Positions 39,135 through 59,611 of a stretch of DNA of 64,000 bases are shown piece after piece (position 1 is the first letter of the stretch; each line of letters opens with the position of its first letter). The notes under the pieces are model-generated. The model was not told where the DNA came from, ran no database searches, and was given only the letters and a program-made list of their open reading frames with translations. Source of the stretch: Actinomycetota bacterium. Lineage in GTDB: Bacteria > Actinomycetota > Thermoleophilia > Solirubrobacterales > 70-9. The stretch is taken from positions 1-64,000 of the forward strand of contig JAFDWB010000018.1 in assembly GCA_018268675.1 (NCBI GenBank). The letters are read 5' to 3'. Position numbers and translations under genes: made by a program.

Positions 39135-40184
39135 ATGATCGAAATGAACGCAAGCCTCGTCCCGATGTTCCAGCGTGAGCTCGAACTCTGCAAGGTGACA
39201 GCCGGCGAGCGGATCGGGATCATCACCCAGAACCGGGTGCGGGCGGCCTACGCCGATGCCTTCGCGACCGCGGCGCGGAGCCTCGGGGCGAAGCCGTTCC
39301 ACGTCGACATGCAGGCCCCGCGCGTCGGCCCGCCGATGGAGGTCGCCGGGCCGCTGAGTGTCAACGCCCTGGCCGACAACGAACTGGTCGCCGAGATGCT
39401 CAAGCGCTGCGGGATGGTCATCGACCTCATCTTCCTGCTCTGGTCGAAGCAACAGCACGAAATCCTCGACGCCGGCTCGCGCATCCTCACCTGTGTCGAT
39501 CCCCCCGACGTGCTCGAGCGCCTCTTCCCGACCGAGGAGGTCGCGACGCGGGTGAAAGCCGACGCCGAGCTGCTTCGCCGGGCGCGGACGATGCGCATCT
39601 TCAACGACCGCGGAACCGACGTCACCTACGAGCTCGGTCAGTACCGGGTGAACCACCAGGTCGGGTTCTCCGACGCGCCCGGGCGCTGGGACCTCTTCGC
39701 GAGCGCGCTCGCTGCGACCTACGGCAACGACGGCGGGGTTGAGGGAACCATCGCCCTCGGCCCAGGCGACCTGATCCTGCCGTTCCGCCGCTATGTGACC
39801 ACCGAGGTGAAGTTCACGATCCGCCGCGGCCGAATCACTGCGATCGACGGTGGCGCCGACGCGAAGATCATCCGCGACTACATGGAGTGGTTCGACGACG
39901 ACCGCGCCTATGGCATGTCTCACGCCGGCTGGTCACAGCACCCAGAGGGCCGCTGGGAGGTCCACTGGCTCGGCTCGGACGGGATCGGGATGGACGGCCG
40001 CAGCCTCGCGGGTGGGGTGATGATCTCGACCGGGCCGAACGTCGAGGGCGGCGGCGACAACGACACCTTCGCCCACCTCGACATCCCGATGCGCGACTGC
40101 TCGGTGGCGCTGGACGGGCAGCTGATCGTCGACGCCGGCCGCCTGCTCGATGTCGGGGTCGCCGACCGGATCACCACGACTTGA
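39135..40184 (+). CDS. nicX: 2,5-dihydroxypyridine 5,6-dioxygenase (NicX-like)
   Basis: The protein is 349 aa, the length of NicX and shorter than M29 aminopeptidases that share the fold. It shows the NicX pattern throughout: CVDPPDVLERLFPTEE, LGQYRVN, APGRWDLF, GDLILPFRRYV, AKIIRDYMEWFDD, STGPNVEGGG and AHLDIPMRDC. The Fe(II)-binding set H...HxD is seen as His263 (GMSHAGW), His314 and Asp316 (HLD). NicX opens 2,5-dihydroxypyridine to N-formylmaleamate, the central step of the maleamate pathway. GGGAGG precedes ATG 39135. Confidence 0.85.
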   Translation: MIEMNASLVPMFQRELELCKVTAGERIGIITQNRVRAAYADAFATAARSLGAKPFHVDMQAPRVGPPMEVAGPLSVNALADNELVAEMLKRCGMVIDLIFLLWSKQQHEILDAGSRILTCVDPPDVLERLFPTEEVATRVKADAELLRRARTMRIFNDRGTDVTYELGQYRVNHQVGFSDAPGRWDLFASALAATYGNDGGVEGTIALGPGDLILPFRRYVTTEVKFTIRRGRITAIDGGADAKIIRDYMEWFDDDRAYGMSHAGWSQHPEGRWEVHWLGSDGIGMDGRSLAGGVMISTGPNVEGGGDNDTFAHLDIPMRDCSVALDGQLIVDAGRLLDVGVADRITTT

Positions 40185-40217: not shown

Positions 40218-41714
40218 ATGAGTTCGAGTGATGTCGCCGTGCCGACCGCGCAGAAGGCCGAGCCCTTCCTCCTGACCGGGGATGAGTACCGCGCCTCCAT
40301 CAGGGATGGCCGCCAGGTCTACTACCGCGGCGAGCGGATCGACGACGTCACCGTTCACCCGGTCACCCGTGGGGCGGTCTCCCAGTTGGCCGCCGTCTAC
40401 GACGCCCAGCACGCGCCGGAGACGCAGGACATCCTCACCTACGTCGGCGAGGACGGCAAGCGGCTCAGCAAGGCCTGGATGCTGCCGCGCTCACCGGACG
40501 ACCTGGTCGGCCGCCGCGAGTGCGCCGAATGGATCGCTAGGCAGAACTTCGGCACCTTCGGTCGCCATCTCGACATGGCGCCGCTGACCCAGGTAGGCGC
40601 TCTGGCGAACATCGGCATCTTCCGCGAGGAGGTGCCGAGATACGCCGACAACATCGCTCCCTACATCAAGGAGGCCCACGAGAGCAACCGGATGATCGCG
40701 GGCTGTTTCGTCGATCCCCAGGGGAAGCGCGCGAAGCGGCGCAGCAAGGAGTCGACGTTCGAGGAGATCCAGCCGGAGACGGGGTTCCCCTCGACCCTGC
40801 GGGTCACGCGCGAAGACAGCAGCGGGTTCTGGGTCAACGGCCCGAAGGCGGTCGGTACCGCGCTGCCGTACTCGCAGGATTGCTACGTCGCCAGCGTCCC
40901 CGGCAAGGCGCCGGAGGAGAGCTTTTGGTTCATCATCCCGGTCGCCAGCGAAGGGCTCAAATTCATCTGCCGCAAGACCGTCGCCGATCTGAACGAATCG
41001 CGGTTCGAGCACCCGCTCGCCGCCCGCGGCGACGAGATCGACGCGATGGTGTTGTTCGAAGATGTGTTCGTCCCCTGGGAGCGGGTCTTCGCCCTCGGCA
41101 CCGGCGCGGTGATGCAGCGCTTCGGCCAGCTCGGGGTGCTCGAGTACTGGTACACGATGATCCGCGTCACGATCAAGGCGGAGATGATCGCCGCGGTGGT
41201 GCGGATGGTGGTCGACACGCTCGACACCCGCGGAATCCAGCTCGTCCGGCAGACGGCCTCCGAGGTGAACCACTGGGCGATCATGCTCCGGTCCCTGATC
41301 GATGCCGCCGAGGCGAAGGGGTCGCTGAACGCGGAGGGCGTCTTCGTGCCCTCGTCGCTGCCGATCACCGCCGGTCGCGCCTACCACATCGAGATGTACC
41401 CGCGGATCCAGCACATCCTGCAGGAGCTCTGCGGGCAGGGCTCGATGATGCGGCTGAGCGAGGCCGACTACCGGGACCCGGAGATCGGCGCGCGCCTCGA
41501 CTGGTTCCTCGAGGGCGAGGGGATGAGCGCCGAGGAAAAGGCGCGGCTGTTCAACCTGGTCTGGGACCTCTCCGGCGACGGTTACGCGGCCCGCACGGCG
41601 CTGTTCGAGAAGCTCAACGGCTTCCCCCTGTTCATCCTCAAGGAATGGCTCTTCAACGAGTACTCCAGCCCGACCGCCGAGAGTGACGTGAGGAAATTCC
41701 TGGAGGGCGTGTGA
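40218..41714 (+). CDS. FADH2-dependent monooxygenase, HpaB (4-hydroxyphenylacetate 3-hydroxylase) family
   Basis: The protein is 498 aa with GAAGGAGA before ATG 40218. HpaB-type motifs include LTGDEYRASIRDGRQVYYRGERIDDV, HLDMAPLTQVGA (cf. flavin pocket), the beta-barrel with SFWFIIPVASEGLKFICR, NESRFEHPLAARGDEIDAMVLFEDVFVPWERVF and helical C-terminus with AGRAYHIEMYPRI. The enzyme needs reduced flavin from a partner, probably the flavin reductase domain at 50757. Placed directly after NicX, it may produce the dihydroxypyridine from a hydroxylated precursor; that is inference. Confidence 0.88.
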   Translation: MSSSDVAVPTAQKAEPFLLTGDEYRASIRDGRQVYYRGERIDDVTVHPVTRGAVSQLAAVYDAQHAPETQDILTYVGEDGKRLSKAWMLPRSPDDLVGRRECAEWIARQNFGTFGRHLDMAPLTQVGALANIGIFREEVPRYADNIAPYIKEAHESNRMIAGCFVDPQGKRAKRRSKESTFEEIQPETGFPSTLRVTREDSSGFWVNGPKAVGTALPYSQDCYVASVPGKAPEESFWFIIPVASEGLKFICRKTVADLNESRFEHPLAARGDEIDAMVLFEDVFVPWERVFALGTGAVMQRFGQLGVLEYWYTMIRVTIKAEMIAAVVRMVVDTLDTRGIQLVRQTASEVNHWAIMLRSLIDAAEAKGSLNAEGVFVPSSLPITAGRAYHIEMYPRIQHILQELCGQGSMMRLSEADYRDPEIGARLDWFLEGEGMSAEEKARLFNLVWDLSGDGYAARTALFEKLNGFPLFILKEWLFNEYSSPTAESDVRKFLEGV

Positions 41715-42487
41715 TGGGGGGGTCGGTGAGGCTCGCCGACCACTCGGCGGCCGCGCTGCGCGAGCTCGCCGCGGGCGGGGCGACCGTCCTGGTCCCGGTC
41801 GGGGCCACCGAGCAGCACGGACCGCACCTGCCGATCGACACCGACACCTACCTCGCCGAGCACTTCTCCCTGCGATGCGCCGAGGAGGTCGACGGGGTGC
41901 TGGTCGCGCCGGCGATCCCGTGGGGACTCTCGGGGAACCATGTACCGCTGGGCGGGACGATCACGCTCCGCCCGACGACCTACCTCGAGCTCCTCCTCGA
42001 TGTCGCCAAGGGGCTGATCGACAGCGGCTTCGAGGATCAGGTGTGGGTGAACGGTCACAACGGCAACAAGCCGACCCTTTCCTTGCTGGTGCAGGAGTGT
42101 CAGTACCGGTGGGGCGCGACGATCGCCACCGTCAGCTACTACGACTTCGGCGGGCAGCGCTACGGCGAAGTGCGGCGCAGCGAGCGGGGCGGCGAGTTCC
42201 ACGCCGGCGAGCTGGAGACGTCGCTGATGCAGATGCTGACCCCGGATCGTGTCGGTCCCACCGACGGGGTCGGCGGTCTGGTCGAGGGGCTCACCGAGTT
42301 CGACCCGGTCGACGTCTCGGGGCCGTTCGCCGCGCACATCGGGGTCGACTACGCGGCCCGGTTCCCCGACGGCGTGGCCGGCGACCCTACCGTCGCATCG
42401 GTGGAGACTGCGGCCGAGGTCGCCGAGGCCGACCTGCGGGGCCTGATCCAGTTCGTCGGCGAATACCGAGATCGGGAGGGATCGTGA
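41714..42487 (+). CDS. Creatininase-family metal-dependent amidohydrolase
   Basis: The protein is 257 aa from ATG 41714 (TGATG junction; GTG 41711 is also possible). Metal ligands of the creatininase fold are present: GATEQHGPHLPIDTDTYLAEH (Glu, His, Asp), VNGHNGNKPTL (His) and EFHAGELETSL (Glu). Members include creatinine amidohydrolase, FAPy deformylase-like enzymes and MftE. Between HpaB and a molybdenum hydroxylase, a C-N bond hydrolysis in the same pathway is likely but the substrate is unknown. Confidence 0.85.
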   Translation: MGGSVRLADHSAAALRELAAGGATVLVPVGATEQHGPHLPIDTDTYLAEHFSLRCAEEVDGVLVAPAIPWGLSGNHVPLGGTITLRPTTYLELLLDVAKGLIDSGFEDQVWVNGHNGNKPTLSLLVQECQYRWGATIATVSYYDFGGQRYGEVRRSERGGEFHAGELETSLMQMLTPDRVGPTDGVGGLVEGLTEFDPVDVSGPFAAHIGVDYAARFPDGVAGDPTVASVETAAEVAEADLRGLIQFVGEYRDREGS

Positions 42488-48392: not shown

Positions 48393-50760
48393 CGGAACCG
48401 CGGACGTCAACCAGCAGGCCCGCCCGGCGCGCTACACCGGCGAGCGGATCAAACGACTCGAGGACCCGCGCCTGCTGATGGGCCGGGCGCGCTTCATCGA
48501 TGATCTCGGCGTCCCCGGGATGGTCCACGCCGCCTTCGTCCGCAGCCCCCACCCGCACGCGCGGATCGTCTCGATCGACAACCGCGCCGCGCTCGCGCTC
48601 GACGGCGTGGTCGCCGTGGTCACAGGAGCAGACCTTGCCGCCGAAACGGCGGAGATGGAGGTCGGCGCGATGCTGAACGGGGTCGAGGCGACAAGTCGTC
48701 CCGCGATCGCGATCAGCAAGGTCCGACACGTCGGCGACCCGGTCGCCGTGGTGGTGGCGAGGAGCCCCTACCTGGCCGAGGACGGCCGCGACCTGGTCCG
48801 GGTCGAGTGGGAGCCGCTGCCGCCGGTCCCCGACGTCGGGACGGCACTGGCCGACGGCGCGCCGCTGATCGACGAGGCGCTGGAGACGAACCACGTCGCC
48901 CACGGGAAGATCGAGATCGGCGATCCCGACGGTCAGTTCGAGACGGCCGCGCACGTGTGCCGCAAGACGTTCAAGGTCGGACGATCGACCGGCGCGCCGG
49001 TGGAGACCCGCGGTCTGCTGGCGGAGTGCGACGCCGGCTCCGGAGCGATCACGCTTTGGACCTCCACCCAGATGCCGCATCTGACGCGGACGCTGCTGGC
49101 GCCGATGCTCCGCGTTCCCGAGAACAAGCTGAGCGTCCACTCACCCGAGGTCGGCGGCGGCTTCGGCCTCAAGTGCCACATCTTTCCCGAGGACGTGGCA
49201 GTCCCCGCCGTCGCGCGGCGGATCGGCAGGCCGGTGAAGTGGATCGAGGACCGGTGGGAGAACCTCTCCGGCGGCGTCCACTCGAAGGAGATGGACTGCG
49301 AGGTCGAGGTCGCGCTCGACGCCGACGGCAAGATGCTGGCGATACGCGGGGCCTTCGTCACCGACGGCGGCGCGTACTCCTCGATCCCGTACACGCCGCT
49401 GATCGACTCGGGCTGCGCCGCCGGGATGCTCCCAAGCATGTACGACGTCGGCCATGTCGCCGCGCAGTTCGACGCCGCCTACACGAACAAGGCGAGCGTC
49501 GGCGCGATCCGCGGCGTCGGCTGGGCCTCGGGGCAGCTCGCCCGCGAGACGCTGCTGGACGACGCGGCGCGGCAGGTCGGGATCGATCCGGTCGAGCTGC
49601 GCCTGCGCAACATGCTCAGCTCGGAGCCGCAGAAGAACATCATGGGCCTCAGCCTGGATGGCGGGAGCTACGCGGAGTCGCTGGCGATGGCGCGTGACGC
49701 GATCGGCTACGAGGAGTTCCGGCGGCGCCAGGACGAGCTCCGGGCCGGCGGCCGATATCTTGGGATCGGCTTCAGCCCGTTCATCGAGCCGACCGGGATG
49801 GCGACCGCCTCGGCCCGGGCGGCGGGCTTCGACATCGCCTACTTCGACTCGGCGACGGTTACGGTGGATCCCGACGGCACGGCGACCGTGAGCACCGGAC
49901 TGCACTCGCACGGCCAGGGCCACGAGACGACGCTCGCCCAGGTGGCGGCCGACGCGCTCGGTTTCGCGATCGAGGACATCCGCGTCGTGTTCGGCAGCAG
50001 CGACAGCCAGTCCTACGGGATGGGCACGTACGCCAGCCGCAGCGCGGTGGTCGGCTCCGGCACGATCATGGCCGCGGCGGCCCAGGTGCGGGCGCGGCTG
50101 CTTGAGCTGGCGGCGACGCTGCTCGAGGCCGATGCCCGGGATATCGACCTGGCGCACGGGGTGGCCCACGTCAAGGGCGCGCCCGCGCGGGGGGTGACCG
50201 TCGCCGAGCTCGCCGGCTTCGGCTACTTCGGCTACGACGCGCGGCCGGATGACGTGCAGGAGTCCGGTCTGACCGCGACGGCCGCCTACGATCCGCCCGA
50301 GACCTACGCGAACGGCACCACGGCGGCGGTCGTCGAGGTCGATCCGGCGCTCGGCACGGTCGACCTGCAGCGGCTCGTGGCGGTCGAGGACTGCGGCCGG
50401 ATGCTGAACCCCTTCATCGTTGACGGCCAGGTGGCGGGCGCGGTCGCCCAGGGGGTCGGCATCGCCCTGCTCGAGGATCTCGCCTACGGGGAGGACGGGG
50501 AGTTCCTGGCCGGCAGCCTGATGCACTACCTCTATCCCTCCACCACCGAGCTCCCGCGCTACGACCTGCTCCACATCGAAACGCCGTCGAGCGCCAGCAC
50601 CGGGGGCGTCAAAGGCGTCGGCGAGGCGGGCACCATCGCCGCGCCGGCCGCGGTCGTCAACGCGATCTCCGACGCGATCAGCCCGTTCGGCGTGTCGATC
50701 GACCGGGTTCCGGTGACGCCGGTCTACCTCCGCGACCTCCTGCGGGGGGCGGGCCGATGA
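48379..50760 (+). CDS. coxL: Molybdenum hydroxylase large subunit (CoxL-like), set 3
   Basis: The protein is 793 aa from ATG 48379. Motifs: KRLEDPRLLMGRARFIDDL, HVGDPVAVVVARSPYLAED, SPEVGGGFGLKCHIFPED, VGAIRGVGWASGQLARE, SHGQGHETTLAQVAADALG and catalytic Glu in GVKGVGEAGTI. Some pocket positions differ from set 2 (GEAG instead of GEGG; GAIRG instead of GAFRA), so the two probably act on different intermediates. ATGA overlap with the next gene. Confidence 0.92.
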   Translation: MSPGSGTADVNQQARPARYTGERIKRLEDPRLLMGRARFIDDLGVPGMVHAAFVRSPHPHARIVSIDNRAALALDGVVAVVTGADLAAETAEMEVGAMLNGVEATSRPAIAISKVRHVGDPVAVVVARSPYLAEDGRDLVRVEWEPLPPVPDVGTALADGAPLIDEALETNHVAHGKIEIGDPDGQFETAAHVCRKTFKVGRSTGAPVETRGLLAECDAGSGAITLWTSTQMPHLTRTLLAPMLRVPENKLSVHSPEVGGGFGLKCHIFPEDVAVPAVARRIGRPVKWIEDRWENLSGGVHSKEMDCEVEVALDADGKMLAIRGAFVTDGGAYSSIPYTPLIDSGCAAGMLPSMYDVGHVAAQFDAAYTNKASVGAIRGVGWASGQLARETLLDDAARQVGIDPVELRLRNMLSSEPQKNIMGLSLDGGSYAESLAMARDAIGYEEFRRRQDELRAGGRYLGIGFSPFIEPTGMATASARAAGFDIAYFDSATVTVDPDGTATVSTGLHSHGQGHETTLAQVAADALGFAIEDIRVVFGSSDSQSYGMGTYASRSAVVGSGTIMAAAAQVRARLLELAATLLEADARDIDLAHGVAHVKGAPARGVTVAELAGFGYFGYDARPDDVQESGLTATAAYDPPETYANGTTAAVVEVDPALGTVDLQRLVAVEDCGRMLNPFIVDGQVAGAVAQGVGIALLEDLAYGEDGEFLAGSLMHYLYPSTTELPRYDLLHIETPSSASTGGVKGVGEAGTIAAPAAVVNAISDAISPFGVSIDRVPVTPVYLRDLLRGAGR

Positions 50761-51887
50761 GCGACTTCGCGCTCGAGCCGGGCACCTTCCGCGACGTCGT
50801 CGGGCGCTTCGCCAGCGGGGTCACCGTGATCACGGCAAGGGACGGTGACGTCGACGCCGGGATGACCGCGAGCGCCGTCACCTCGCTGTCGCTCGAGCCG
50901 CCGATGATGCTCGTCTGCATCAACCGGTCGGCGCCGACCGGCGAGTCCGTCGCCCGCGCCGGCCATTTTGCGGTCAACATCCTGCGCGGCGACCAAGGCG
51001 AGGTGGCCCTCGCGTTCGCCGCCCCCTCCGAGGACAAGTTCAAAGGCATCCCGATCTCCCGCGGGACCTGGGGCGAGCCGCTGATCGACGGGGCGCTGGC
51101 GACGATCGAGTGCGAGGTCGTCGAGGAAGTGTCGGGAGGTACCCACACCGTCTTCCTCGGTCGGGCTCATGTTGCCGAGGCCCAGCCGGGCTCGCCGCTC
51201 GCCTACTTCCGCGGCGGATTCGGGCGACTCGAGCTGGAGCCGGACGAGGCCGTCTACGGCGACGTCCGCGAGCGGGTCCTGTCGCGCGAGATACCGCTCG
51301 GGGTCGCCTTCGATCTGGACGATCTGGCGGACCAGATCGGGGCTGAGCGCCAGGCTGTGTTCCACGCGATCTCGCGGCTGCGGGCGGAGGGGATCGTGAT
51401 GCGCGAGGGGATCGGTCGCTATCTGGTGACGCCGCTCGATGAAACCGTCGTCGTGGGAGCCTTTCGCGCCCGCACGATCATCGAGCGCGGCGCTGCCGAG
51501 GCTGCGGTCGGCCGACTCGACGCAGACGAGATGGCGGGGCTGCGCGAGAGCCTGGAGGCGACCGCACCCGGGGCCGATCCCCTCACCGCCCAGTGGTTCT
51601 TCGAGGTGAACCAGCGCTTCCACGAGGACCTCGTCTCACTTGGCGGCGGCCCTCTCCTCATCCGTGCCCATCGCCAGCTCACCTTCGAGGGTGTCCTGGC
51701 CCGCACGCTCCACGGCACCGAGTTCCGCGCCGACCTGGTCGCCCGCGATTATGAGGACCACCGGGCCATCGTCGCCGCCTACGAAGCAGGCGACGTCGAC
51801 GCCGCCAAGTCGGCGATCAGCGCCCATTCCGCCCACGCCGAGCGTGATGTCGTCGCAGCGCTCGCGGAGGCTGGGGGGCATGCGTAG
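50757..51887 (+). CDS. Flavin reductase fused to a GntR/FCD-type regulator
   Basis: The protein is 376 aa. Residues 1-160 are an HpaC-type flavin reductase (FRDVVGRFASGVTVITA, MTASAVTSLSLEPPMMLVCINR, HFAVNILRGDQ). Residues ~165-235 are a winged helix (IPLGVAFDLDDLADQIGAERQAVFHAISRLRAEGIVMREG). Residues 240-370 are an FCD-like helical domain (RTIIERGAAEAAVGRL, NQRFHEDLVSLGGGPLL, EDHRAIVAAYEAGD). It would supply reduced flavin to the HpaB-type enzyme at 40218 and may sense flavin, substrate or DNA. No frame break is seen, so the fusion is genuine in this sequence. Confidence 0.85.
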   Translation: MSDFALEPGTFRDVVGRFASGVTVITARDGDVDAGMTASAVTSLSLEPPMMLVCINRSAPTGESVARAGHFAVNILRGDQGEVALAFAAPSEDKFKGIPISRGTWGEPLIDGALATIECEVVEEVSGGTHTVFLGRAHVAEAQPGSPLAYFRGGFGRLELEPDEAVYGDVRERVLSREIPLGVAFDLDDLADQIGAERQAVFHAISRLRAEGIVMREGIGRYLVTPLDETVVVGAFRARTIIERGAAEAAVGRLDADEMAGLRESLEATAPGADPLTAQWFFEVNQRFHEDLVSLGGGPLLIRAHRQLTFEGVLARTLHGTEFRADLVARDYEDHRAIVAAYEAGDVDAAKSAISAHSAHAERDVVAALAEAGGHA

Positions 51888-52185
51888 AAGGTCGTCCGGC
51901 CCGGCCTGACCGATCCGCTCCCGGGACATCCCCGCGACGCTTCCTCCACGCGCACCGTCCCGCACTCACCCGGGGCGCCGACGAGTCCTGCTTCTCTCCC
52001 CGTCCCTTGCCCGCTCGGCCGCCAGCTTCTCCGCGCTCCGCGGTGAGTTCTGGGCGGCGGCGCTTGCCGGAATCCCGGTGTTCGCAGGCGTCGATCGCCG
52101 TGCTTATGACAGTTCTGCAACTTGACATATGCTATTTCATGTGCCAGGGTCCCAAATGGGTATTCACGGAACAAGGAGGAGAGAT
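51888..52185. other. Intergenic region with promoter-like sites before the importer operon
   Basis: Most of this ~300-bp stretch is GC-rich with no coding signal. Near its end an A/T-rich patch (52104-52141) contains TTATGA and, 18 bp on, TATGCT, a possible -35/-10 pair, plus TTGACA at 52122-52127. The sequence CATATGCTATTTCATGTG resembles the palindromic region at 23901-23917. The operon's promoter is probably here, but the exact hexamers are uncertain. Confidence 0.4.
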
Positions 52186-53400
52186 TTGCTGGGCAATGGA
52201 ACCGCGGTGACCGGCAAGCGACGGTGGCGTCTCTTGGCACCGGTCTCGCTGGCGGTCGTGGCCGCCTTGTCACTCAGCGCCTGCGGAAGTTCGAGCAGTT
52301 CGAGCTCGACCTCGTCGTCCGGCAATCAGTCCTCGGGCGAAGGAAAGACGGCTTCTGGGGGCAGGGAAGCCCTCGAATCGATCAACGTCACCGCCGTCTT
52401 CCCGAACTCGCTCAAAGGAAATCTCTACAACGAAATCCACAACGGTGCGCTGGAAGCGGCCGCGAAGTCGATCGGTGAAAACAAAGTTCACTACAAAAGC
52501 GTTTTCGGGATCGAATACAACCAGCAGATGACCCACACCACGGAACAGTTGTTCCAGCAGAACCAGAACCTGGTCATCGACGATCTCTCCGCCGGACAGC
52601 TATTCAGCGAAGCGTGCAAGAAAAACCCGGAAAAAATGTGCGCGGGGCTGTACTCCTACATCGGCGAAACCTCAGAACCGCCGGCGCCGAACCTGGCCTC
52701 CTTCTACCAGGACGACGCGCCGATGTGGTACGTCGAGGGCCTTGCCGCGGGCGAACTGACGAAATCCGGGACGGTGGGCTTCGTCAGCACGTTCAAACAG
52801 GCGTTCGACACGGCGGTGGTCAACGCGTTCGCGCTGGGTTGCCAGAAAACCCACCCTGGCTGTCAGGTCCGCAACGTCTACATCAATTCGTTCTACGACC
52901 CGCCGAAATCGGTCGAAGCGGCGAACGCCCTGATCAACTCGGGCGCCGACGTCATCAACTCGTTCCTCGACGATCCGTCGGCGTTGAAGGTCGCCGGTGA
53001 ACACGGTGTCTGGGGCTTCGGCGTCTACGCCGACCAAAGTCAGGAAGCACCCCAAACCTGGGTGACCGGCGTCGAATTCGAAAAAGGCCTGACCAAGACC
53101 TACGAAGAAATCTTCAACGCCGCTCTCGACGGGAGCTTCAAAGGCGGCCAGATGTTCTGGGGCACGCCCAAACCGCCGAACCTCAACCTCGCCCCATTCG
53201 GTCCGAAGGTCCCGGCCGCCGTGAAAACCAACACCGAAAAAGCCCTGAAGGAAATCGAAGGCGGCAAAAACCCCTTCGTCGGCCCGATCGAAGACACGAC
53301 CGGGAAGGTCCGGATCCCGAAGGGCAAGGAAATCGAAATCCGCGGCTCGTACCTGTACACCAAGTGGCTCTGGCCGGTGAAGGGTGTGATCGGGCTCTGA
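52186..53400 (+). CDS. BMP-family ABC transporter substrate-binding lipoprotein
   Basis: The protein is 404 aa. AAGGAGGA at 52173-52180 selects the TTG at 52186; longer frames from 52129 lack such a site. A signal peptide ends in the lipobox LSLSACGSSS, followed by a Ser linker. The mature part (INVTAVFPNSLKGNLYNEIHN, GLAAGELTKSGTVGFVS, GVWGFGVYADQSQ) is of the BMP/PnrA type, which binds nucleosides and related heterocycles. Codons use GAA and AAA far more than neighbouring genes. It is followed by matching ATPase and permeases. Confidence 0.88.
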   Translation: MLGNGTAVTGKRRWRLLAPVSLAVVAALSLSACGSSSSSSSTSSSGNQSSGEGKTASGGREALESINVTAVFPNSLKGNLYNEIHNGALEAAAKSIGENKVHYKSVFGIEYNQQMTHTTEQLFQQNQNLVIDDLSAGQLFSEACKKNPEKMCAGLYSYIGETSEPPAPNLASFYQDDAPMWYVEGLAAGELTKSGTVGFVSTFKQAFDTAVVNAFALGCQKTHPGCQVRNVYINSFYDPPKSVEAANALINSGADVINSFLDDPSALKVAGEHGVWGFGVYADQSQEAPQTWVTGVEFEKGLTKTYEEIFNAALDGSFKGGQMFWGTPKPPNLNLAPFGPKVPAAVKTNTEKALKEIEGGKNPFVGPIEDTTGKVRIPKGKEIEIRGSYLYTKWLWPVKGVIGL

Positions 53401-53431
53401 TCCCCGCTCGCGCGCCTCGAGCTCGGTTCCT

Positions 53432-54994
53432 GTGACAGTCGATTCCCCCAGTAGCGACCGCGAGCGATGCCCTGCACTTCAGCTGCAGGGCATCGCCAAG
53501 CGGTTCGGCCCCCAACTCGCGCTCGACGCCGTCGACTTCGAGGTGGGGCAGGCCGAGGTACACGGTCTTCTCGGCGAGAACGGCGCCGGGAAGACCACGC
53601 TGATGAACATCGCGAGCGGCCTCCTGCGGATGGACGAAGGGACGATCTCGGTCCAGGGTCAGCAGGTCAACCTGTCCTCGCCGGCGGATGCGTTCGCGGT
53701 CGGGATCGGGATGGTTCACCAGAACTACCGCCTGGTCGAGCGCATGACGGTCGCGCAGAACCTGCACATCGGTTGGTCGGAGACGCCGCGGCTGGCGTCG
53801 TCCAAGGCACTCCAGCGTCACGCCGCCGAGCTGGGCGAGCGCTTCGAACTTGCGGTCGATCCCGCCGCGCGGATCTCCGACCTGTCGATCGGCGAGCGCC
53901 AGCGGGTCGCGATCCTCCGCACGGTCGCGCGCGGCGCGCGGCTCCTGATCCTCGACGAGCCCACCGCGGTCCTCACTCCGCAGGAGGCGGCGTCCCTCTT
54001 CAAGATCATCCGCGCGATGGCCGCGGACGGCCGCTCCGTCGTCCTCATCTCCCACAAGCTGAACGAGGTCATGCAGGTCGCCGACCGCGTCACCGTGCTG
54101 CGCCACGGGAAGCGGATCGCCTCGCTCCCCCGCGGCGAGTGCGACGTCGCCAAGCTGGCGCGGCTGATGATCGGCCACGACATCGTCCCCGAGCGGTACC
54201 TGGCCGGGGAGCCGACCGACACGGTGTTGGACGTCGAGAGCCTCGTCGCCCTGAGCGATGACGGCAGGCGGCTGCTCGACAACCTCTCGTTCTCGGTCCG
54301 CCGCGGCGAGATCGTCGGGGTCGCCGGGGTGTCAGGCAACGGGCAGAGCGAGCTCGCACAGGTCCTCACCGGACTGCAGGCGCCGGCGGAGGGAGTCATC
54401 TCCGTGGCGGGCGCCGATCTCACCGGATCCGCGCCGGTCGAGTTCATCAAGGCCGGGGTCGGCCACATCGCCGAGCACCACCGGCGCGGGCTGGCGACCA
54501 CCGAGACGGCGCAGATGAACGCCGTGATCAAGGACGTGCACGTGCCGCCGATCCGCCGCGGCCCCTTCCTCAACCGGCGCTCGATCCGCACCGTTGCCGA
54601 GGGGATCCTCGACGCGGCGAACCTGAGCGGCCGCGCCGGCGTCCGCGTGGCGACCTTCTCGGGCGGGCAGATGCAGCGGCTGATGGTCCATCGCGAGGTG
54701 GCGGCGACCTCCTCGCTGCTCGTCGCGATGTATCCGACCAGGGGGCTGGACGTCGCTGCGACGGAGCATGTGCACGACCTGCTGCGCGACGTGCGGGCCC
54801 GCGGCGCCGGGGTTCTGCTCGTCTCCGAGGACCTCAACGAGCTGCTCGTCGTCTCCGACCGCATCCTGGTCATCTACGACGGCCAGATCGTCGGCCAGTT
54901 CGCCCGCGACCAGGTCGACCGCGACGAGCTCGGCCTGCTGATGGGCGGCGCCAAGGTCGGCGCGGACCGGGGGGGAGGGGAGGCGGTCTCGTGA
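53432..54994 (+). CDS. ABC transporter ATPase with two nucleotide-binding domains (BMP-type system)
   Basis: The protein is 520 aa from GTG 53432. Domain 1 has Walker A LLGENGAGKTTLMNI, signature LSIGERQRVAILR and Walker B LLILDEPTAVLTPQE. Domain 2 has the degenerate P-loop GVSGNGQSELAQVL and FSGGQMQRLMVHRE, with MYPTRGLDV at Walker B. This is the standard two-domain layout of nucleoside/sugar importers such as the PnrA and Rbs types. It energises the permeases that follow with a GTGA overlap. Confidence 0.92.
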   Translation: MTVDSPSSDRERCPALQLQGIAKRFGPQLALDAVDFEVGQAEVHGLLGENGAGKTTLMNIASGLLRMDEGTISVQGQQVNLSSPADAFAVGIGMVHQNYRLVERMTVAQNLHIGWSETPRLASSKALQRHAAELGERFELAVDPAARISDLSIGERQRVAILRTVARGARLLILDEPTAVLTPQEAASLFKIIRAMAADGRSVVLISHKLNEVMQVADRVTVLRHGKRIASLPRGECDVAKLARLMIGHDIVPERYLAGEPTDTVLDVESLVALSDDGRRLLDNLSFSVRRGEIVGVAGVSGNGQSELAQVLTGLQAPAEGVISVAGADLTGSAPVEFIKAGVGHIAEHHRRGLATTETAQMNAVIKDVHVPPIRRGPFLNRRSIRTVAEGILDAANLSGRAGVRVATFSGGQMQRLMVHREVAATSSLLVAMYPTRGLDVAATEHVHDLLRDVRARGAGVLLVSEDLNELLVVSDRILVIYDGQIVGQFARDQVDRDELGLLMGGAKVGADRGGGEAVS

Positions 54995-56148
54995 CCGCGG
55001 CGACCGTAGATCGCGACCCCGCCTCGGAGCCCACCGCGCGGAGGCGCTTCACCCTCGACCTCAGGGACCCGGCGACCGTCATCCCCAAGGGCCGCCACCG
55101 CGTCGGCGCGATCGTGATCGGCCTGATCGTCAGCGCGATCTACCTGAGCCGCCAGCCGGGTGTCGGCGGCACCCTCGGGCAGACCGCCTGGAACTCCACC
55201 TTCGGCAACGAACTCGGGTTCTCCCAGGTGCTGGAAATCACCATGCCCCTGCTGGTCGCCGGCTGCGCCGCGGCGCTGGCGCAGGGGGTCGGGATGTGGA
55301 ACCTCGGCATCCAGGGCCAGCTGATCTTCGGCGCCTGGGTGACGACGCTGGTCGCCTACACCGTGCCGAACCTCCCCGGCGAGGTGCTGATCCCGATCCT
55401 GCTGCTCGCCGGCTGCCTCGGCGGCGCGGTCTGGATGCTGGTCCCGGCCTTCGCTCGCGCGTTCCTCAAGGTCGACGAGATCATCACCACGCTGATGCTC
55501 AACTTCGTCGCCGCCCTCTGGCTCGCCTACTGGGCGACCGGGCCGTGGGCGCAGACCAACCTGTCGTCGGGAGCGGCGACCGGGGCGCTGTTCAGCCGCG
55601 AACTCACCTCCAACGCCTTCCTGCCGCAGTTCGAAATCAGCGGCGTCACCTTCGGCCTCGCGCTGCCGATCGCGCTGGCGCTCGCGGTGTGCCTCTGGGC
55701 TGCGATGCGCTGGTCGCATTTCGGCCTCAACGCCCAGCTCACCGGCTCCGGCGACGAGCTCGGCCGTTACGCCGGCGTGCGCACGAGGACGACCCGCTTC
55801 TCGATCCTGTTGCTGAGCGGCGCTGTCGCCGGGCTGTGCGGCGCCTTGGTCGAGCTCGACAAGGTGCACAGCTTCTCGACCCCGATCACCGCCAACGACC
55901 CCGGGTACATCGGCGTCGTGGTCGCGCTCCTGGCCGGGAACTACCTCCTCGCCGCGATCCCGTCGGCCGTCCTGATCGCGGTGATCGTCGTCGTCGGCAC
56001 CGCCCTGCAGCTCTCCGGGATCGACCCGAGCGTGATCTACCTGATGACCGGCCTTCTGCTCCTCTTCGCGGCCTGCTCGAACCTGGTCGGTCGGATCGAC
56101 ATCCACCGCCGCGGCGCCGAGACGAAACCGGTGGAGGAGGGGTCGTGA
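54991..56148 (+). CDS. ABC transporter permease 1 (BMP-type nucleoside/heterocycle importer)
   Basis: The protein is 385 aa from GTG 54991. About nine to ten membrane helices are present, with the BPD_transp_2 signatures GMWNLGIQGQLIFGAW, ALPIALALAVCLWAAMRWSHFG and LNAQLTGSGDELGRYAGV. It is the larger of the permease pair. A GTGA overlap leads to the second permease. Confidence 0.9.
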   Translation: MTAATVDRDPASEPTARRRFTLDLRDPATVIPKGRHRVGAIVIGLIVSAIYLSRQPGVGGTLGQTAWNSTFGNELGFSQVLEITMPLLVAGCAAALAQGVGMWNLGIQGQLIFGAWVTTLVAYTVPNLPGEVLIPILLLAGCLGGAVWMLVPAFARAFLKVDEIITTLMLNFVAALWLAYWATGPWAQTNLSSGAATGALFSRELTSNAFLPQFEISGVTFGLALPIALALAVCLWAAMRWSHFGLNAQLTGSGDELGRYAGVRTRTTRFSILLLSGAVAGLCGALVELDKVHSFSTPITANDPGYIGVVVALLAGNYLLAAIPSAVLIAVIVVVGTALQLSGIDPSVIYLMTGLLLLFAACSNLVGRIDIHRRGAETKPVEEGS

Positions 56149-57080
56149 GCACCCTCCAGGCGTCCCTGGCCGCGGCCGTGGTGGCGGCGACGCCGCTCCT
56201 CTACGCGGCGCTGGGCGAGATCCTCAACGAGCGCGTCGGCGTCATCGACATCGGCCTCGAGGGAATCATGCTGATGGGGGCGGTGGGCGGCTTCATCTTC
56301 GCGGTCAAAAGCAACAGCGCCCCGGTGGCGCTCTTGGCCGGTGGCGGGGCGGGCGCGCTCTTCACCCTGATCGCCTTCACGCTGCCGGCGGTGGTGATGG
56401 GCGCCTCTCAGGTCCTCGTCGGGTTCGCGCTCTGGTTCCTCGGCATCGGGTTGTCGGCGCAGGTCGGCAGCTCCTACGCGGGCCTACCGCTCCAGCTCCA
56501 CATCGGCGTGGTCAAGGTCCCCCTGTTGCATTCGCTGCCCTGGATCGGCCCGATCTTCTTCGAACAGATCTGGCCCGTCTACCTCGGCGTCGCGATCTGC
56601 CTGGCCGCCGCCTTCGTCTGCGCGCGCACCCGGCACGGGCTCAACATGAAAGCGATCGGCGACGACCCGGCCTCGGCCTTCGCGGCCGGCGTGGCGGTGA
56701 AGCGCTGGCAGGCGTTCTACTCGGTCCTCGGCGGCTTCCTCGCCGGGATCGGGGGCGCGATCCTCAGCGTCGCCGTCCTCCACCACTGGGGCGACCAGCT
56801 GACGGCGGGGCGCGGCTTCATCGCCCTGGCGCTGGTGATCTTCGCCGCCTGGCGACCGCTGTCGCTGCTCTGGACCTCCTACCTCTTCGGCGTCTGCCTG
56901 GTCCTCTCCAGCCTCGGCCAGGCGCAGGGCTGGAGCATCCCCTCGCCGATCCTCTCGATGGCCCCCTATCTCTTCACCGTGCTGATCCTCGTGCTGCGGG
57001 GCTGGCGGGCGCTGTACTCGAACCGGGGAGGCCTGGCGCCCGCCGCCCTCGGCGTCCCCTTCATCCGGGGGCAACGGTGA
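56145..57080 (+). CDS. ABC transporter permease 2 (BMP-type nucleoside/heterocycle importer)
   Basis: The protein is 311 aa from GTG 56145; the long open frame upstream is ignored because of the operon overlap. The family pattern LYAALGEILNERVGVIDIGLEGIMLMGAV opens the protein, and ARTRHGLNMKAIGDDPASAFAAGV is the conserved cytoplasmic loop that contacts the ATPase. It forms the channel together with permease 1. The stop overlaps the GTG of the amidohydrolase fusion, which ties import to that enzyme. Confidence 0.9.
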   Translation: MSTLQASLAAAVVAATPLLYAALGEILNERVGVIDIGLEGIMLMGAVGGFIFAVKSNSAPVALLAGGGAGALFTLIAFTLPAVVMGASQVLVGFALWFLGIGLSAQVGSSYAGLPLQLHIGVVKVPLLHSLPWIGPIFFEQIWPVYLGVAICLAAAFVCARTRHGLNMKAIGDDPASAFAAGVAVKRWQAFYSVLGGFLAGIGGAILSVAVLHHWGDQLTAGRGFIALALVIFAAWRPLSLLWTSYLFGVCLVLSSLGQAQGWSIPSPILSMAPYLFTVLILVLRGWRALYSNRGGLAPAALGVPFIRGQR

Positions 57081-58219
57081 GCGAGCGCGCCGGCTCCGAG
57101 GACGTGGAGGCGATCTACGCGACCGCCGGCTGGGGGCAGAGGGTGCCGCGCGGCCGGCGACCCGCGGTCCTCGTCGTCGACCTGAGCCGCGGCTTCACCG
57201 ACGAGCGGTACCCGACCGGCGCCGATCTGACCTCGGCGGTCGAGTCCACCGCGCGGCTGATCGGGGTCGCGCGGGCAGCCGGGGCGCCGACGATCTTCAC
57301 GACGATCGCCTACGAGCCGGCCGATGTGGAGGGCGAGGCGAGCGGGTGGCTCCGGAAGGCGGCCGGCCTGGCGATCCTGCGGGCGGGCTCACCCCTCGCC
57401 GAAATCGATCCGCGGCTCCCGCGCGAGCCGACCGACCCGCTGGTCGTGAAGAAGGGCGCGTCTGCCTTCTTCGGCACCGAGCTGGCCGCGACGCTCGTCT
57501 CCCTTGGTGTCGACACGCTGCTGATCTGCGGCGCCACGACCAGCGGGTGCGTGCGGGCCAGCGCGGTCGATGCCGCCCAATACGGCTTCGCCGTGCTCGT
57601 GCCCGAGGCGTGCGTCGGCGACCGGGCGAGCGCCCCGCACGAGGCGAACCTGTTCGACATCGATGCCAAGTACGGGGACGTGATCGGACTCGACGACGCA
57701 CTCGAGTTCCTGCTCTCCACCGCCCCCCCGCAGCCCGATGGCGACGATGCGCCCGCCCTCACCTTCGCCGATCTGGACGCGCTGACCGCAGAGCTGGCCG
57801 CTCCCGGCGGCGGCCAAGGTCCGGTGGCGGACCGGTTCAATCGCTCCTTCATCGACGCCTTCCGCCGGCACGACGGCCACGTTCCCGGCGAGGTGGGGAC
57901 GCTCGACGTGCTCCTGCTGACGACGAAGGGTGCGAAGACCGGCAAGGACCGGACGACCCCCGTCGTCTACGTCGAGATCGACGGCCGCATCCTCGTCGTC
58001 GCCTCGATGGGCGGCTCGGACCGGCACCCGTCCTGGTACCACAACGTCCGCACGAATCCGGAGCTCACGGTCGAGCTCGGCGAGGAGACCTTCGCCGCTC
58101 GCGCGGTGGCGGTCGAGGGCCCGCTGCGGGACCGGCTCTTCGCGGCGAGCCCGGTGTTCACCGAATACCAGGCGCGCACCAGTCGGGTCCTGCCGGTGCT
58201 GGAGCTGCAGCGCCGCTGA
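57077..58219 (+). CDS. Isochorismatase-fold amidohydrolase fused to an F420-type oxidoreductase domain
   Basis: The protein is 380 aa. Residues 1-215 are a cysteine hydrolase of the N-carbamoylsarcosine/maleamate amidohydrolase group, with Asp in VLVVDLSRGFTDE, Lys in LVVKKGASAFFGTEL and nucleophilic Cys in ICGATTSGCVRASAVDA. Residues ~240-380 resemble deazaflavin (F420)-dependent nitroreductases: LLTTKGAKTGKDRTTPVVYV, VVASMGGSDRHPSWYHNVRTNP. In a pathway with NicX the first domain could release ammonia from maleamate (NicF role). The reason for the redox domain is unknown. Confidence 0.85.
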   Translation: MSERAGSEDVEAIYATAGWGQRVPRGRRPAVLVVDLSRGFTDERYPTGADLTSAVESTARLIGVARAAGAPTIFTTIAYEPADVEGEASGWLRKAAGLAILRAGSPLAEIDPRLPREPTDPLVVKKGASAFFGTELAATLVSLGVDTLLICGATTSGCVRASAVDAAQYGFAVLVPEACVGDRASAPHEANLFDIDAKYGDVIGLDDALEFLLSTAPPQPDGDDAPALTFADLDALTAELAAPGGGQGPVADRFNRSFIDAFRRHDGHVPGEVGTLDVLLLTTKGAKTGKDRTTPVVYVEIDGRILVVASMGGSDRHPSWYHNVRTNPELTVELGEETFAARAVAVEGPLRDRLFAASPVFTEYQARTSRVLPVLELQRR

Positions 58220-58279: not shown

Positions 58280-59611
58280 ATGCGGGCGGCGCATGATCTT
58301 CCGATACTGCTCGCAGTGGCCCACGACGCGATCATCATCGGCGGCGGCGTCTCCGGGCTGATCGCCGCCCGCGATCTGGCCGAGCGCGGTCACGACGTGG
58401 TGTTGCTGGAGGCGGGCGACCGGCTTGGCGGCAGGCTCTACTACCGGCCGTTCAGCGCCGACCCCGAGGTGATGGTAGAGATGGGCGGGGCCTACATCGA
58501 CTCGAAGTTCCACCACCGGGTCTTCGCGGAGCTGGGGCGATACGACATCGCCACCACCAAGCCCGGCGAGTCGATCACGAACTACCGGCACGCGCTCGCC
58601 GGCGAGGCGAGCACCCGGGGCCTGCCGGTCCCCGAGGAGGAGTTCCTCCAGGCGGAGCAGGTGTGGTTCGGGATCCTCGCCGCCGCGCGTCGGATCGAGC
58701 TCGGGGTCGGCCTCGACAACCAGGGCCTGGACGACCTCGATATCTCGGTCGAGGACTTCCTCGCGAGCTTCGATCCGCCCCCGCACATGCGGGACCTCTT
58801 GCGGGCGTGGGCCTGGAACATGATGGGGATGCCGCCCGACAAGGCCTCGGCGCTCTGGATCCTGCAGTTCATCGCCGCCCACGGTCACAGCGTGCTCGGG
58901 GTCGTCCTCTCGGTCGACGAGGTGTTCGCCGACGGAAGCGCCGCCCTGATCGACGCGCTCGCCGCCGAGCTGCCTGACGTCCGGCTGGGAAGCCGCGTCG
59001 TCGCGATCGAGCAGAGCGGCGGCGAGGTGAGCGTGGAGCTGGAGGGCGGCGAGCGCCTCGCCGCGCCCGCGGCGGTGCTGGCGACGCCGCTCAACACCTG
59101 GCGCGGGATCCGCTTCGAGCCCGCCCTGACCGGGGTCCGCCAAGAAGTCGTCGAGGAAGGGCAGGGGTGCCGCGGGGTGAAGCTCCTGATCCTTGCCGAG
59201 AACGTCCCGGAGGGCGTCTACGGAGCGGGCTTCCGCGGCTCCCTGGCCACCGTCTACGAATACATGCCGGTCGGCGACCGGCGCCTGCTCGTCTCCTTCA
59301 CCGACGTCGACTCCGTCGACCCGACCGACCTCGACGCGATCGAGCGGGGGTTGCGCCAGTTCGTCCCCGAGGCCAAGGTCGTGGCGGCGGATGCGCACGA
59401 CTGGACCGCGGACCCGCTCTTCGACGGCGGCTGGATGTCGCCGCGCATCGGCCAGATCAGCCGCGTCCACTCGAAGCTGGGCGAACCGAGTGGCAGGCTG
59501 TTCTTCGCCGGCTCCGACGTCTCGATGCAGTGGCCGAGCTACATCGAGGGGGCGATCGAGACCGGCGCGCGGGCCGCGGTCGAGGTCGAGGAGCGGCTCA
59601 GCGGTCGCTAG
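58280..59611 (+). CDS. Flavin-containing amine oxidase (monoamine oxidase / 6-hydroxynicotine oxidase-like)
   Basis: The protein is 443 aa from ATG 58280; GTG 58316 is an equally plausible start just before AHDAIIIGGGVSGLIAARDLAERGHDVVLLEAGDRLGGRL, the FAD motif. The C-terminus has the second FAD contact GRLFFAGSDVSMQWPSYIEGAIETGARAA, typical of monoamine oxidases. Substrate-side Cys flavin attachment is not evident at the usual place, so FAD is probably non-covalent. Relatives oxidise amines including nicotine derivatives. The end overlaps the convergent XdhC gene by 14 nt. Confidence 0.87.
   Translation: MRAAHDLPILLAVAHDAIIIGGGVSGLIAARDLAERGHDVVLLEAGDRLGGRLYYRPFSADPEVMVEMGGAYIDSKFHHRVFAELGRYDIATTKPGESITNYRHALAGEASTRGLPVPEEEFLQAEQVWFGILAAARRIELGVGLDNQGLDDLDISVEDFLASFDPPPHMRDLLRAWAWNMMGMPPDKASALWILQFIAAHGHSVLGVVLSVDEVFADGSAALIDALAAELPDVRLGSRVVAIEQSGGEVSVELEGGERLAAPAAVLATPLNTWRGIRFEPALTGVRQEVVEEGQGCRGVKLLILAENVPEGVYGAGFRGSLATVYEYMPVGDRRLLVSFTDVDSVDPTDLDAIERGLRQFVPEAKVVAADAHDWTADPLFDGGWMSPRIGQISRVHSKLGEPSGRLFFAGSDVSMQWPSYIEGAIETGARAAVEVEERLSGR

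What the first reader, a model, noticed from the sequence alone, without database searches (positions are those of the whole stretch)
57077..58219. Amidohydrolase fused to an F420-type oxidoreductase
An isochorismatase-fold hydrolase with full Asp-Lys-Cys triad is joined to a Ddn-like deazaflavin-binding domain and coupled to an importer operon. Hydrolysing an amide and reducing (or oxidising) a product in one protein is unusual and may mark a new pathway step.
Basis: partly seen in the sequence, partly recalled or inferred. Interest (0 to 1): 0.6.

Follow-up and report, generated by a model that had tools for sequence, protein, structure and literature searches.

The report
Maleamate amidohydrolase fused to F420 reductase
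In one uncultured actinobacterium, the enzyme that makes maleate near the end of nicotine-type pyridine-ring breakdown is fused to a small reductase domain that should use the rare cofactor F420; no other genome searched has this fusion, and what the reductase half does there is untested.

Summary
The ORF at 57077-58219 is real and joins two intact domains in one frame: an isochorismatase-fold hydrolase and a Ddn/FDOR-A deazaflavin reductase. The hydrolase half belongs to the maleamate amidohydrolase (NicF/Ami/NdpG) clade: 55% to NdpG, model matches Ami-maleate at TM 0.96 and 1.2 A, triad D35-K125-C158 invariant. Neighbours agree: the next gene is a 49% homologue of 6-hydroxy-L-nicotine oxidase, and the contig carries two NicX-like dioxygenases, a 2,6-dihydroxypyridine hydroxylase-like gene, NicD, maleate isomerase, many molybdenum hydroxylases and a second, stand-alone NicF. 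The reductase half keeps five published F420 contacts (T288, R292, P295, W320, N323) but not four others; the genome has cofH. No second fusion appeared in surveys of the order, class and phylum (about 800 genomes), 153 relatives across GTDB, or plasmids; NicF and FDOR are otherwise separate. A homopolymer frameshift artefact was tested and is disfavoured. Best mechanism: maleamate to maleate and ammonia, plus F420H2 reduction of azaquinones formed by autoxidised hydroxypyridines (inferred). New variant of a known kind, seen once.

The parts
57077..58219 (+). fused gene: maleamate amidohydrolase (NicF-like) + FDOR-A deazaflavin reductase, 380 aa
57077..57715 (+). N-terminal NicF-like amidohydrolase domain (res 1-213; triad D35, K125, C158)
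   Evidence: Ami 4L07 E 9e-60; Foldseek 4L08 TM 0.96, 1.2 A; invariant triad; 55% to NdpG
57716..57823 (+). linker (res 214-249), low-confidence, partly Gly/Pro rich; contains C7 homopolymer at 57723
   Evidence: pLDDT<50 for 219-254; coding score
57824..58216 (+). C-terminal FDOR-A (Ddn-like) domain (res 250-380); possible internal GTG start at 57824
   Evidence: PF04075 2.5e-32; 8D4W MSMEG_2850 7.7e-27; Foldseek 3R5Z/7KL8/8D4W
52129..53400 (+). BMP/PnrA-type substrate-binding protein of ABC importer
   Evidence: PF02608
53432..54994 (+). importer ATPase
   Evidence: PF00005, two stretches
54991..56148 (+). importer permease 1
   Evidence: PF02653
56145..57080 (+). importer permease 2; its stop overlaps the start of the fused gene
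   Evidence: NF047928-like, below its cut-off; sequence
58280..59611 (+). 6-hydroxy-L-nicotine oxidase-like flavin amine oxidase, 49% identity; N166, K287, Y311, F326, W371, Y407 positions conserved
39135..40184 (+). NicX/NdpE-like 2,5-dihydroxypyridine 5,6-dioxygenase (41% to NdpE)
   Evidence: 7CN3 1e-70
40218..41714 (+). HpaB-type flavin-dependent monooxygenase, oxygenase component
   Evidence: PF11794/PF03241
47014..50760 (+). molybdenum hydroxylase (FAD, 2Fe-2S and Mo subunits) upstream of the importer
50757..51887 (+). flavin reductase fused to GntR/FCD regulator
   Evidence: PF01613 + PF00392 + PF07729

Best explanation
The protein is a two-domain enzyme of a pyridine-ring (nicotine-type) catabolic island. 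The N-domain hydrolyses maleamate, produced by NicX-type ring cleavage, to maleate and ammonia through a Cys158 thioester with Asp35 as general base and Lys125 as its helper. The C-domain binds F420H2 in an FDOR-A groove and transfers hydride to an electrophilic by-product of the same pathway, most likely quinone forms (azaquinones, nicotine-blue-type dimers) of autoxidised di- and trihydroxypyridines, as nicotine blue oxidoreductase does with NAD(P)H in Paenarthrobacter. Shown by sequence and structure comparison: domain identities, triad, most of the F420-site motif, operon and island context, an F420 biosynthesis gene. Inferred: the substrates of both domains, and any benefit from fusing them (co-expression at a fixed ratio rather than channelling).
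For: N-domain: best solved relatives by sequence are Ami (9e-60) and an N-carbamoylsarcosine amidohydrolase (4e-59); by fold Ami-maleate 4L08 (TM 0.96, 1.2 A, 50%), then NicF 3UAO/3OT4, with CSHase 1NBA lower; 55% to NdpG in an annotated nicotine cluster; the tree places it with NicFs that lie next to nicD/nicX and Mo hydroxylases; invariant triad matching NicF Asp29-Lys117-Cys150 (PMC5806882). Island: 6HLNO-like next gene with six checked active-site positions kept, NicX1, NicX2 53%, maleate isomerase 53%, NicD 38%, 2,6-dihydroxypyridine hydroxylase-like 3.5e-95. C-domain: nearest solved relative 8D4W MSMEG_2850, an FDOR-A1 whose strongest listed substrates are quinones; published Ddn contacts T56, R60, P63, W88, N91 (PMC3267046) map at exact spacing to T288, R292, P295, W320, N323; cofH above cut-off in the genome. 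Precedent: nicotine blue oxidoreductase (PMC6214936).
Against: No FDOR lies near any other NicF fetched and no second fusion exists in the sets searched, so the role of the C-domain rests on one gene. Ddn K79, R54, Y65 and Y133 positions are M311, A286, V297 and F361 (these positions vary in stand-alone relatives, but Y65, K79 and Y133 mattered in Ddn). A stand-alone NicF already exists on the contig. The 13 codons before the C-domain are not coding-like and an internal GTG start is well placed. The C-domain model is of low confidence (pLDDT 61 alone). The genome is a draft with about 3% estimated contamination.
Confidence: 0.5

Rival explanations
1. Same amidase, but the FDOR domain is an ene-reductase that reduces the C=C bond of maleamate or maleate, giving succinamate/succinate and bypassing the maleate isomerase.
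For: The nearest solved FDOR (8D4W) is titled for asymmetric ene-reduction of alpha,beta-unsaturated compounds; FDOR-A enzymes reduce enones; the substrate would be the substrate or product of the fused domain, which explains the fusion directly.
Against: A maleate isomerase gene is on the same contig (53% to NdpH), so no bypass is needed; listed enone activity of MSMEG_2850 is weak next to quinones; anionic maleate is a poor electrophile (general chemistry).
Confidence: 0.2
2. Adjacent genes only recently run together by stop loss; the FDOR part is a passenger that may also be made alone from the internal GTG, and the two activities are unrelated.
For: Fusion seen once; GTG at codon 250 at the start position of stand-alone homologues; non-coding-like 237-249.
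Against: Residues 218-235 are coding-like in the fused frame; no relative fetched has an FDOR gene beside nicF from which to derive it.
Confidence: 0.2
3. Assembly or sequencing artefact: a one-base error in the C7 run at 57723 joins two separate genes.
For: With C6 the amidase ends at residue 235, near normal NicF length; C7 lies at the end of the NicF homology.
Against: Codon scores after C7 favour the observed frame by about 10 nats over 18 codons; 28 conserved genes containing 4 C/G7 runs are intact.
Confidence: 0.07
4. The N-domain is an N-carbamoylsarcosine-type or other ureido amidohydrolase rather than a maleamate amidase.
For: An N-carbamoylsarcosine amidohydrolase in the PDB (26ST) scores almost as well by sequence as Ami (4e-59 against 9e-60).
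Against: Fold ranking favours Ami and NicF over CSHase 1NBA; the tree groups it with NicFs next to nicD/nicX; island content is pyridine catabolism.
Confidence: 0.1

Closest known systems
Maleamate amidohydrolase: Ami (P. putida S16, 4L07/4L08), NicF (Bordetella, 3UAO), NdpG (sphingomonads)
   Same: fold, Asp-Lys-Cys triad, 50-55% identity to Ami (structural alignment) and NdpG, NicX/NicD/maleate isomerase on the same contig
   Different: known ones are about 205-235 aa stand-alone proteins with no reductase domain
FDOR-A reductases (MSMEG_2850 8D4W; Ddn Rv3547; nfa33440)
   Same: split-barrel domain, GAKTG...R..P and HPSWYHN motifs, 36-40% identity
   Different: known ones are stand-alone, about 130-150 aa; here the domain follows a ~36-aa linker after an amidohydrolase; Ddn K79 and Y133 replaced by Met and Phe
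Nicotine catabolic clusters (pAO1 of Paenarthrobacter; ndp of sphingomonads)
   Same: 6HLNO-like oxidase, Mo hydroxylases, 2,6-DHP hydroxylase-like gene, NicX/NicD/NicF/maleate isomerase set
   Different: here spread over about 60 kb with duplicated NicX and NicF and BMP-type importers; nicotine dehydrogenase, KDH/DHPONH or HSP hydroxylase not assigned
[quoted passage not shown]
   Same: proposed job: reduce quinone by-products of trihydroxypyridine
   Different: different protein and cofactor; similarity is functional and inferred only

Membership tests
maleamate amidohydrolase (NicF/Ami) | isochorismatase fold with Asp-Lys-Cys triad | tested here: met
   PF00857; D35/K125/C158 invariant; Foldseek 4L08 TM 0.96
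maleamate amidohydrolase (NicF/Ami) | closest relatives are maleamate amidases linked to nicX/nicD | tested here: met
maleamate amidohydrolase (NicF/Ami) | hydrolyses maleamate to maleate and ammonia | not testable with these tools
   needs an enzyme assay
maleamate amidohydrolase (NicF/Ami) | single-domain architecture (usual, not catalytic) | tested here: not met
   fused to PF04075; hence filed as a variant
FDOR-A (Ddn-like F420H2-dependent reductase) | PF04075 and TIGR00026 above cut-off | tested here: met
   112 bits against 22; 90 bits against 46
FDOR-A (Ddn-like F420H2-dependent reductase) | F420-contact residues | tested here: inconclusive
   T56, R60, P63, W88, N91 kept at exact spacing; R54, Y65, K79, Y133 replaced
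FDOR-A (Ddn-like F420H2-dependent reductase) | host makes F420 | tested here: met
   cofH 423 bits against cut-off 374; other F420 genes not checked
FDOR-A (Ddn-like F420H2-dependent reductase) | binds and oxidises F420H2 | not testable with these tools
   needs an assay
nicotine degradation locus | 6-hydroxynicotine oxidase and lower pathway genes | tested here: met
nicotine degradation locus | nicotine dehydrogenase and the middle steps identified | tested here: inconclusive
   several Mo hydroxylases, but large subunits only about 25% identical to the annotated nicotine dehydrogenase

The most novel reading that the evidence does not exclude
A bifunctional enzyme in which maleamate hydrolysis is physically coupled to F420H2-dependent reduction of a pathway intermediate, i.e. 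an F420-dependent step in nicotine/pyridine catabolism, where none was found described in the papers searched.
Probability: 0.25. Interest if true: 0.65.

Novelty: new variant of a known kind. Interest (0 to 1): 0.42.

Why it matters
If the C-domain works on a hydroxypyridine-derived compound, F420 would enter pyridine-alkaloid catabolism, where the known quinone-reducing step uses NAD(P)H. The fusion names a concrete candidate substrate set for an FDOR-A enzyme, a family whose physiological substrates are mostly unknown. The contig also shows a large nicotine-type catabolic island in an uncultured lineage related to Solirubrobacterales.

Tried and rejected
Maleate-isomerase bypass as the main idea: weakened when a PF17645 maleate isomerase was found on the same contig. 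C7 frameshift artefact: tested by codon scores and disfavoured. G027:C4 match spanning 155-367 looked like a second fusion but reads through a TAG, and the FDOR there is a separate 171-aa ORF. Viral contigs gave no relative. Rfam found nothing at 50-64 kb. A literature search for an isochorismatase-deazaflavin fusion found none: none of the listed F420 papers contained the word isochorismatase. Orthologous importer operon: the same-genus operon G037:C146 (permease 2, 56%) carries no NicF or FDOR beside it.

Full report
Observation. The reported ORF is there: 57077-58219 on the + strand, 380 aa, GTG start, no internal stop. Pfam gives Isochorismatase at residues 30-206 (7e-35) and F420H2_quin_red at 256-375 (2.5e-32); NCBIfam's deazaflavin-dependent oxidoreductase model TIGR00026 is above its cut-off. 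The gene starts inside the stop of the upstream permease, so it is the last member of a BMP/ATPase/permease/permease importer operon (52129-57080). A flavin amine oxidase gene follows 60 bp downstream.

Is it one gene? A run of seven C lies at 57723, codon 216, where NicF homology ends. With one C fewer the amidase would stop at residue 235. I therefore scored codon usage by frame. The 18 codons after the run score +7.4 nats in the fused frame and -2.8 in the alternative; residues 237-249 score slightly negative; the C-domain scores 0.40 nats/codon. Twenty-eight conserved genes on the same contig (34.5 kb, with four C/G runs of seven in them) are intact. I conclude that the fusion is probably genuine, and note that GTG at codon 250 sits where stand-alone FDORs begin, so a separate C-terminal product is possible.

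Amidase half. The best PDB sequence matches are the maleamate amidase Ami (9e-60) and an N-carbamoylsarcosine amidohydrolase (4e-59); sequence score alone does not separate the two functions. The predicted N-domain (pLDDT mostly above 85) superposes best on Ami C149A with maleate (4L08, TM 0.96 on the target, 1.2 A, 50% identity), then NicF, with CSHase lower. D35, K125 and C158 are invariant in 40 relatives and correspond to NicF Asp29, Lys117 and Cys150 (PMC5806882). It is 55% identical to NdpG of an annotated nicotine cluster on a Sphingobium plasmid. In a quick tree of 140 sequences it falls inside a clade whose members lie next to NicD, NicX and molybdenum hydroxylases, apart from the 68%-identical stand-alone paralogue at contig position 88218-88901, which groups with same-genus orthologues. 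The tree is the quick version; the careful search did not finish.

Island. The next gene, 58280-59611, is 49% identical to 6-hydroxy-L-nicotine oxidase, with positions N166, K287, Y311, F326, W371 and Y407 conserved (I chose these residues from knowledge of the 6HLNO/MAO family). The contig (124.5 kb) carries NicX-like genes at 39135 (7CN3, 1e-70; 41% to NdpE) and 90786 (53% to NdpE), NicD at 89898 (38% to NdpF) and maleate isomerase at about 79.4-80.1 kb (53% to NdpH), the only PF17645 member found in the genome. It also has a 2,6-dihydroxypyridine hydroxylase-like gene at 80114 (2VOU, 3.5e-95), an HpaB-type monooxygenase and several molybdenum hydroxylases. In nicotine catabolism maleamate is reached from 2,5-dihydroxypyridine via N-formylmaleamate, and has been proposed for the 2,3,6-trihydroxypyridine branch, whose details are unclear (PMC6122326). 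Two NicX and two NicF but one NicD would fit two branches, the second needing no deformylase; this is inference.

Reductase half. The nearest solved relatives are FDOR-A proteins: 8D4W (MSMEG_2850, 7.7e-27), 3R5Z, 4Y9I/6WTA, 7KL8 and Ddn. A single-sequence model (pLDDT 61) still finds the same set by fold. Published Ddn contacts (PMC3267046) fall at exact spacing on T288 (T56), R292 (R60), P295 (P63), W320 (W88) and N323 (N91), with the catalytic-site S78 at S310; R54, Y65, K79 and Y133 become A286, V297, M311 and F361. Those four positions also vary among stand-alone relatives, and 3R5Z, with Leu at the K79 position, was solved with F420. cofH is present above cut-off. F420 binding is thus likely but untested. 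MSMEG_2850 is listed as FDOR-A1 with quinones as strongest substrates, coumarins next and enones weak (PMC8498797; see also PMC5449967).

Rarity. The fused protein was searched in 232 genomes of the order, 399 drawn from the class and 396 drawn from the phylum; these sets overlap and hold about 800 genomes in all. It was also searched in 84,980 GTDB species by pattern scan (153 relatives, best 80 kept) and in plasmids (546 records, none covering 80%). No match spans both domains; every NicF and FDOR found is separate, and no FDOR lies near the NicFs fetched. The scans are pattern- or candidate-limited, so absence elsewhere is well supported but not complete. The importer operon of the nearest same-genus genome lacks the gene.

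Mechanism. Shown: domain content, catalytic triad, F420-site motif in part, operon and island. Inferred: the N-domain makes maleate and ammonia from maleamate; the C-domain uses F420H2 to reduce an electrophilic compound of the same pathway. I rate azaquinones from autoxidised hydroxypyridines first, by analogy with nicotine blue oxidoreductase (whose protective role has been questioned, PMC6214936) and with FDOR-A1 substrate preference; ene-reduction of maleamate or maleate comes second. The fusion would give fixed co-expression; channelling has no support.

Verdict. The amidase half is a known step, not a new one; the reductase half is a sound but single-case pointer to F420 in pyridine catabolism.

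Noticed in passing
window 50757-51887: A second unusual fusion near the importer operon: flavin reductase domain (PF01613) joined to a GntR/FCD transcription regulator (PF00392, PF07729); could be a flavin- or substrate-sensing regulator.
   Followed up: partly
own contig C9 32-98 kb (window 32950 onward, and L118, L119): Large pyridine/nicotine-type catabolic island with at least five molybdenum hydroxylase sets, two NicX, two NicF, NicD, maleate isomerase and a 2,6-dihydroxypyridine hydroxylase-like gene.
   Followed up: partly
window 41711-42487: Creatininase-family protein (MftE-like, below cut-off) between the HpaB-type monooxygenase and a molybdenum hydroxylase; role unclear.
   Followed up: no
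L009 8648-9646 (between nicF and nicD): An isocitrate/isopropylmalate-dehydrogenase-like ORF, judged by eye from its start sequence, sits between nicF and nicD; possibly a D-malate dehydrogenase.
   Followed up: no
L119 14457-15137: A RibB-like (DHBP synthase) ORF, judged by eye from its start sequence, lies in the island after a molybdenum hydroxylase.
   Followed up: no
L120 9090-12939 and L124 (contig 109-114 kb): A second BMP-type ABC importer operon, 43-55% identical to the one upstream of the fused gene.
   Followed up: partly
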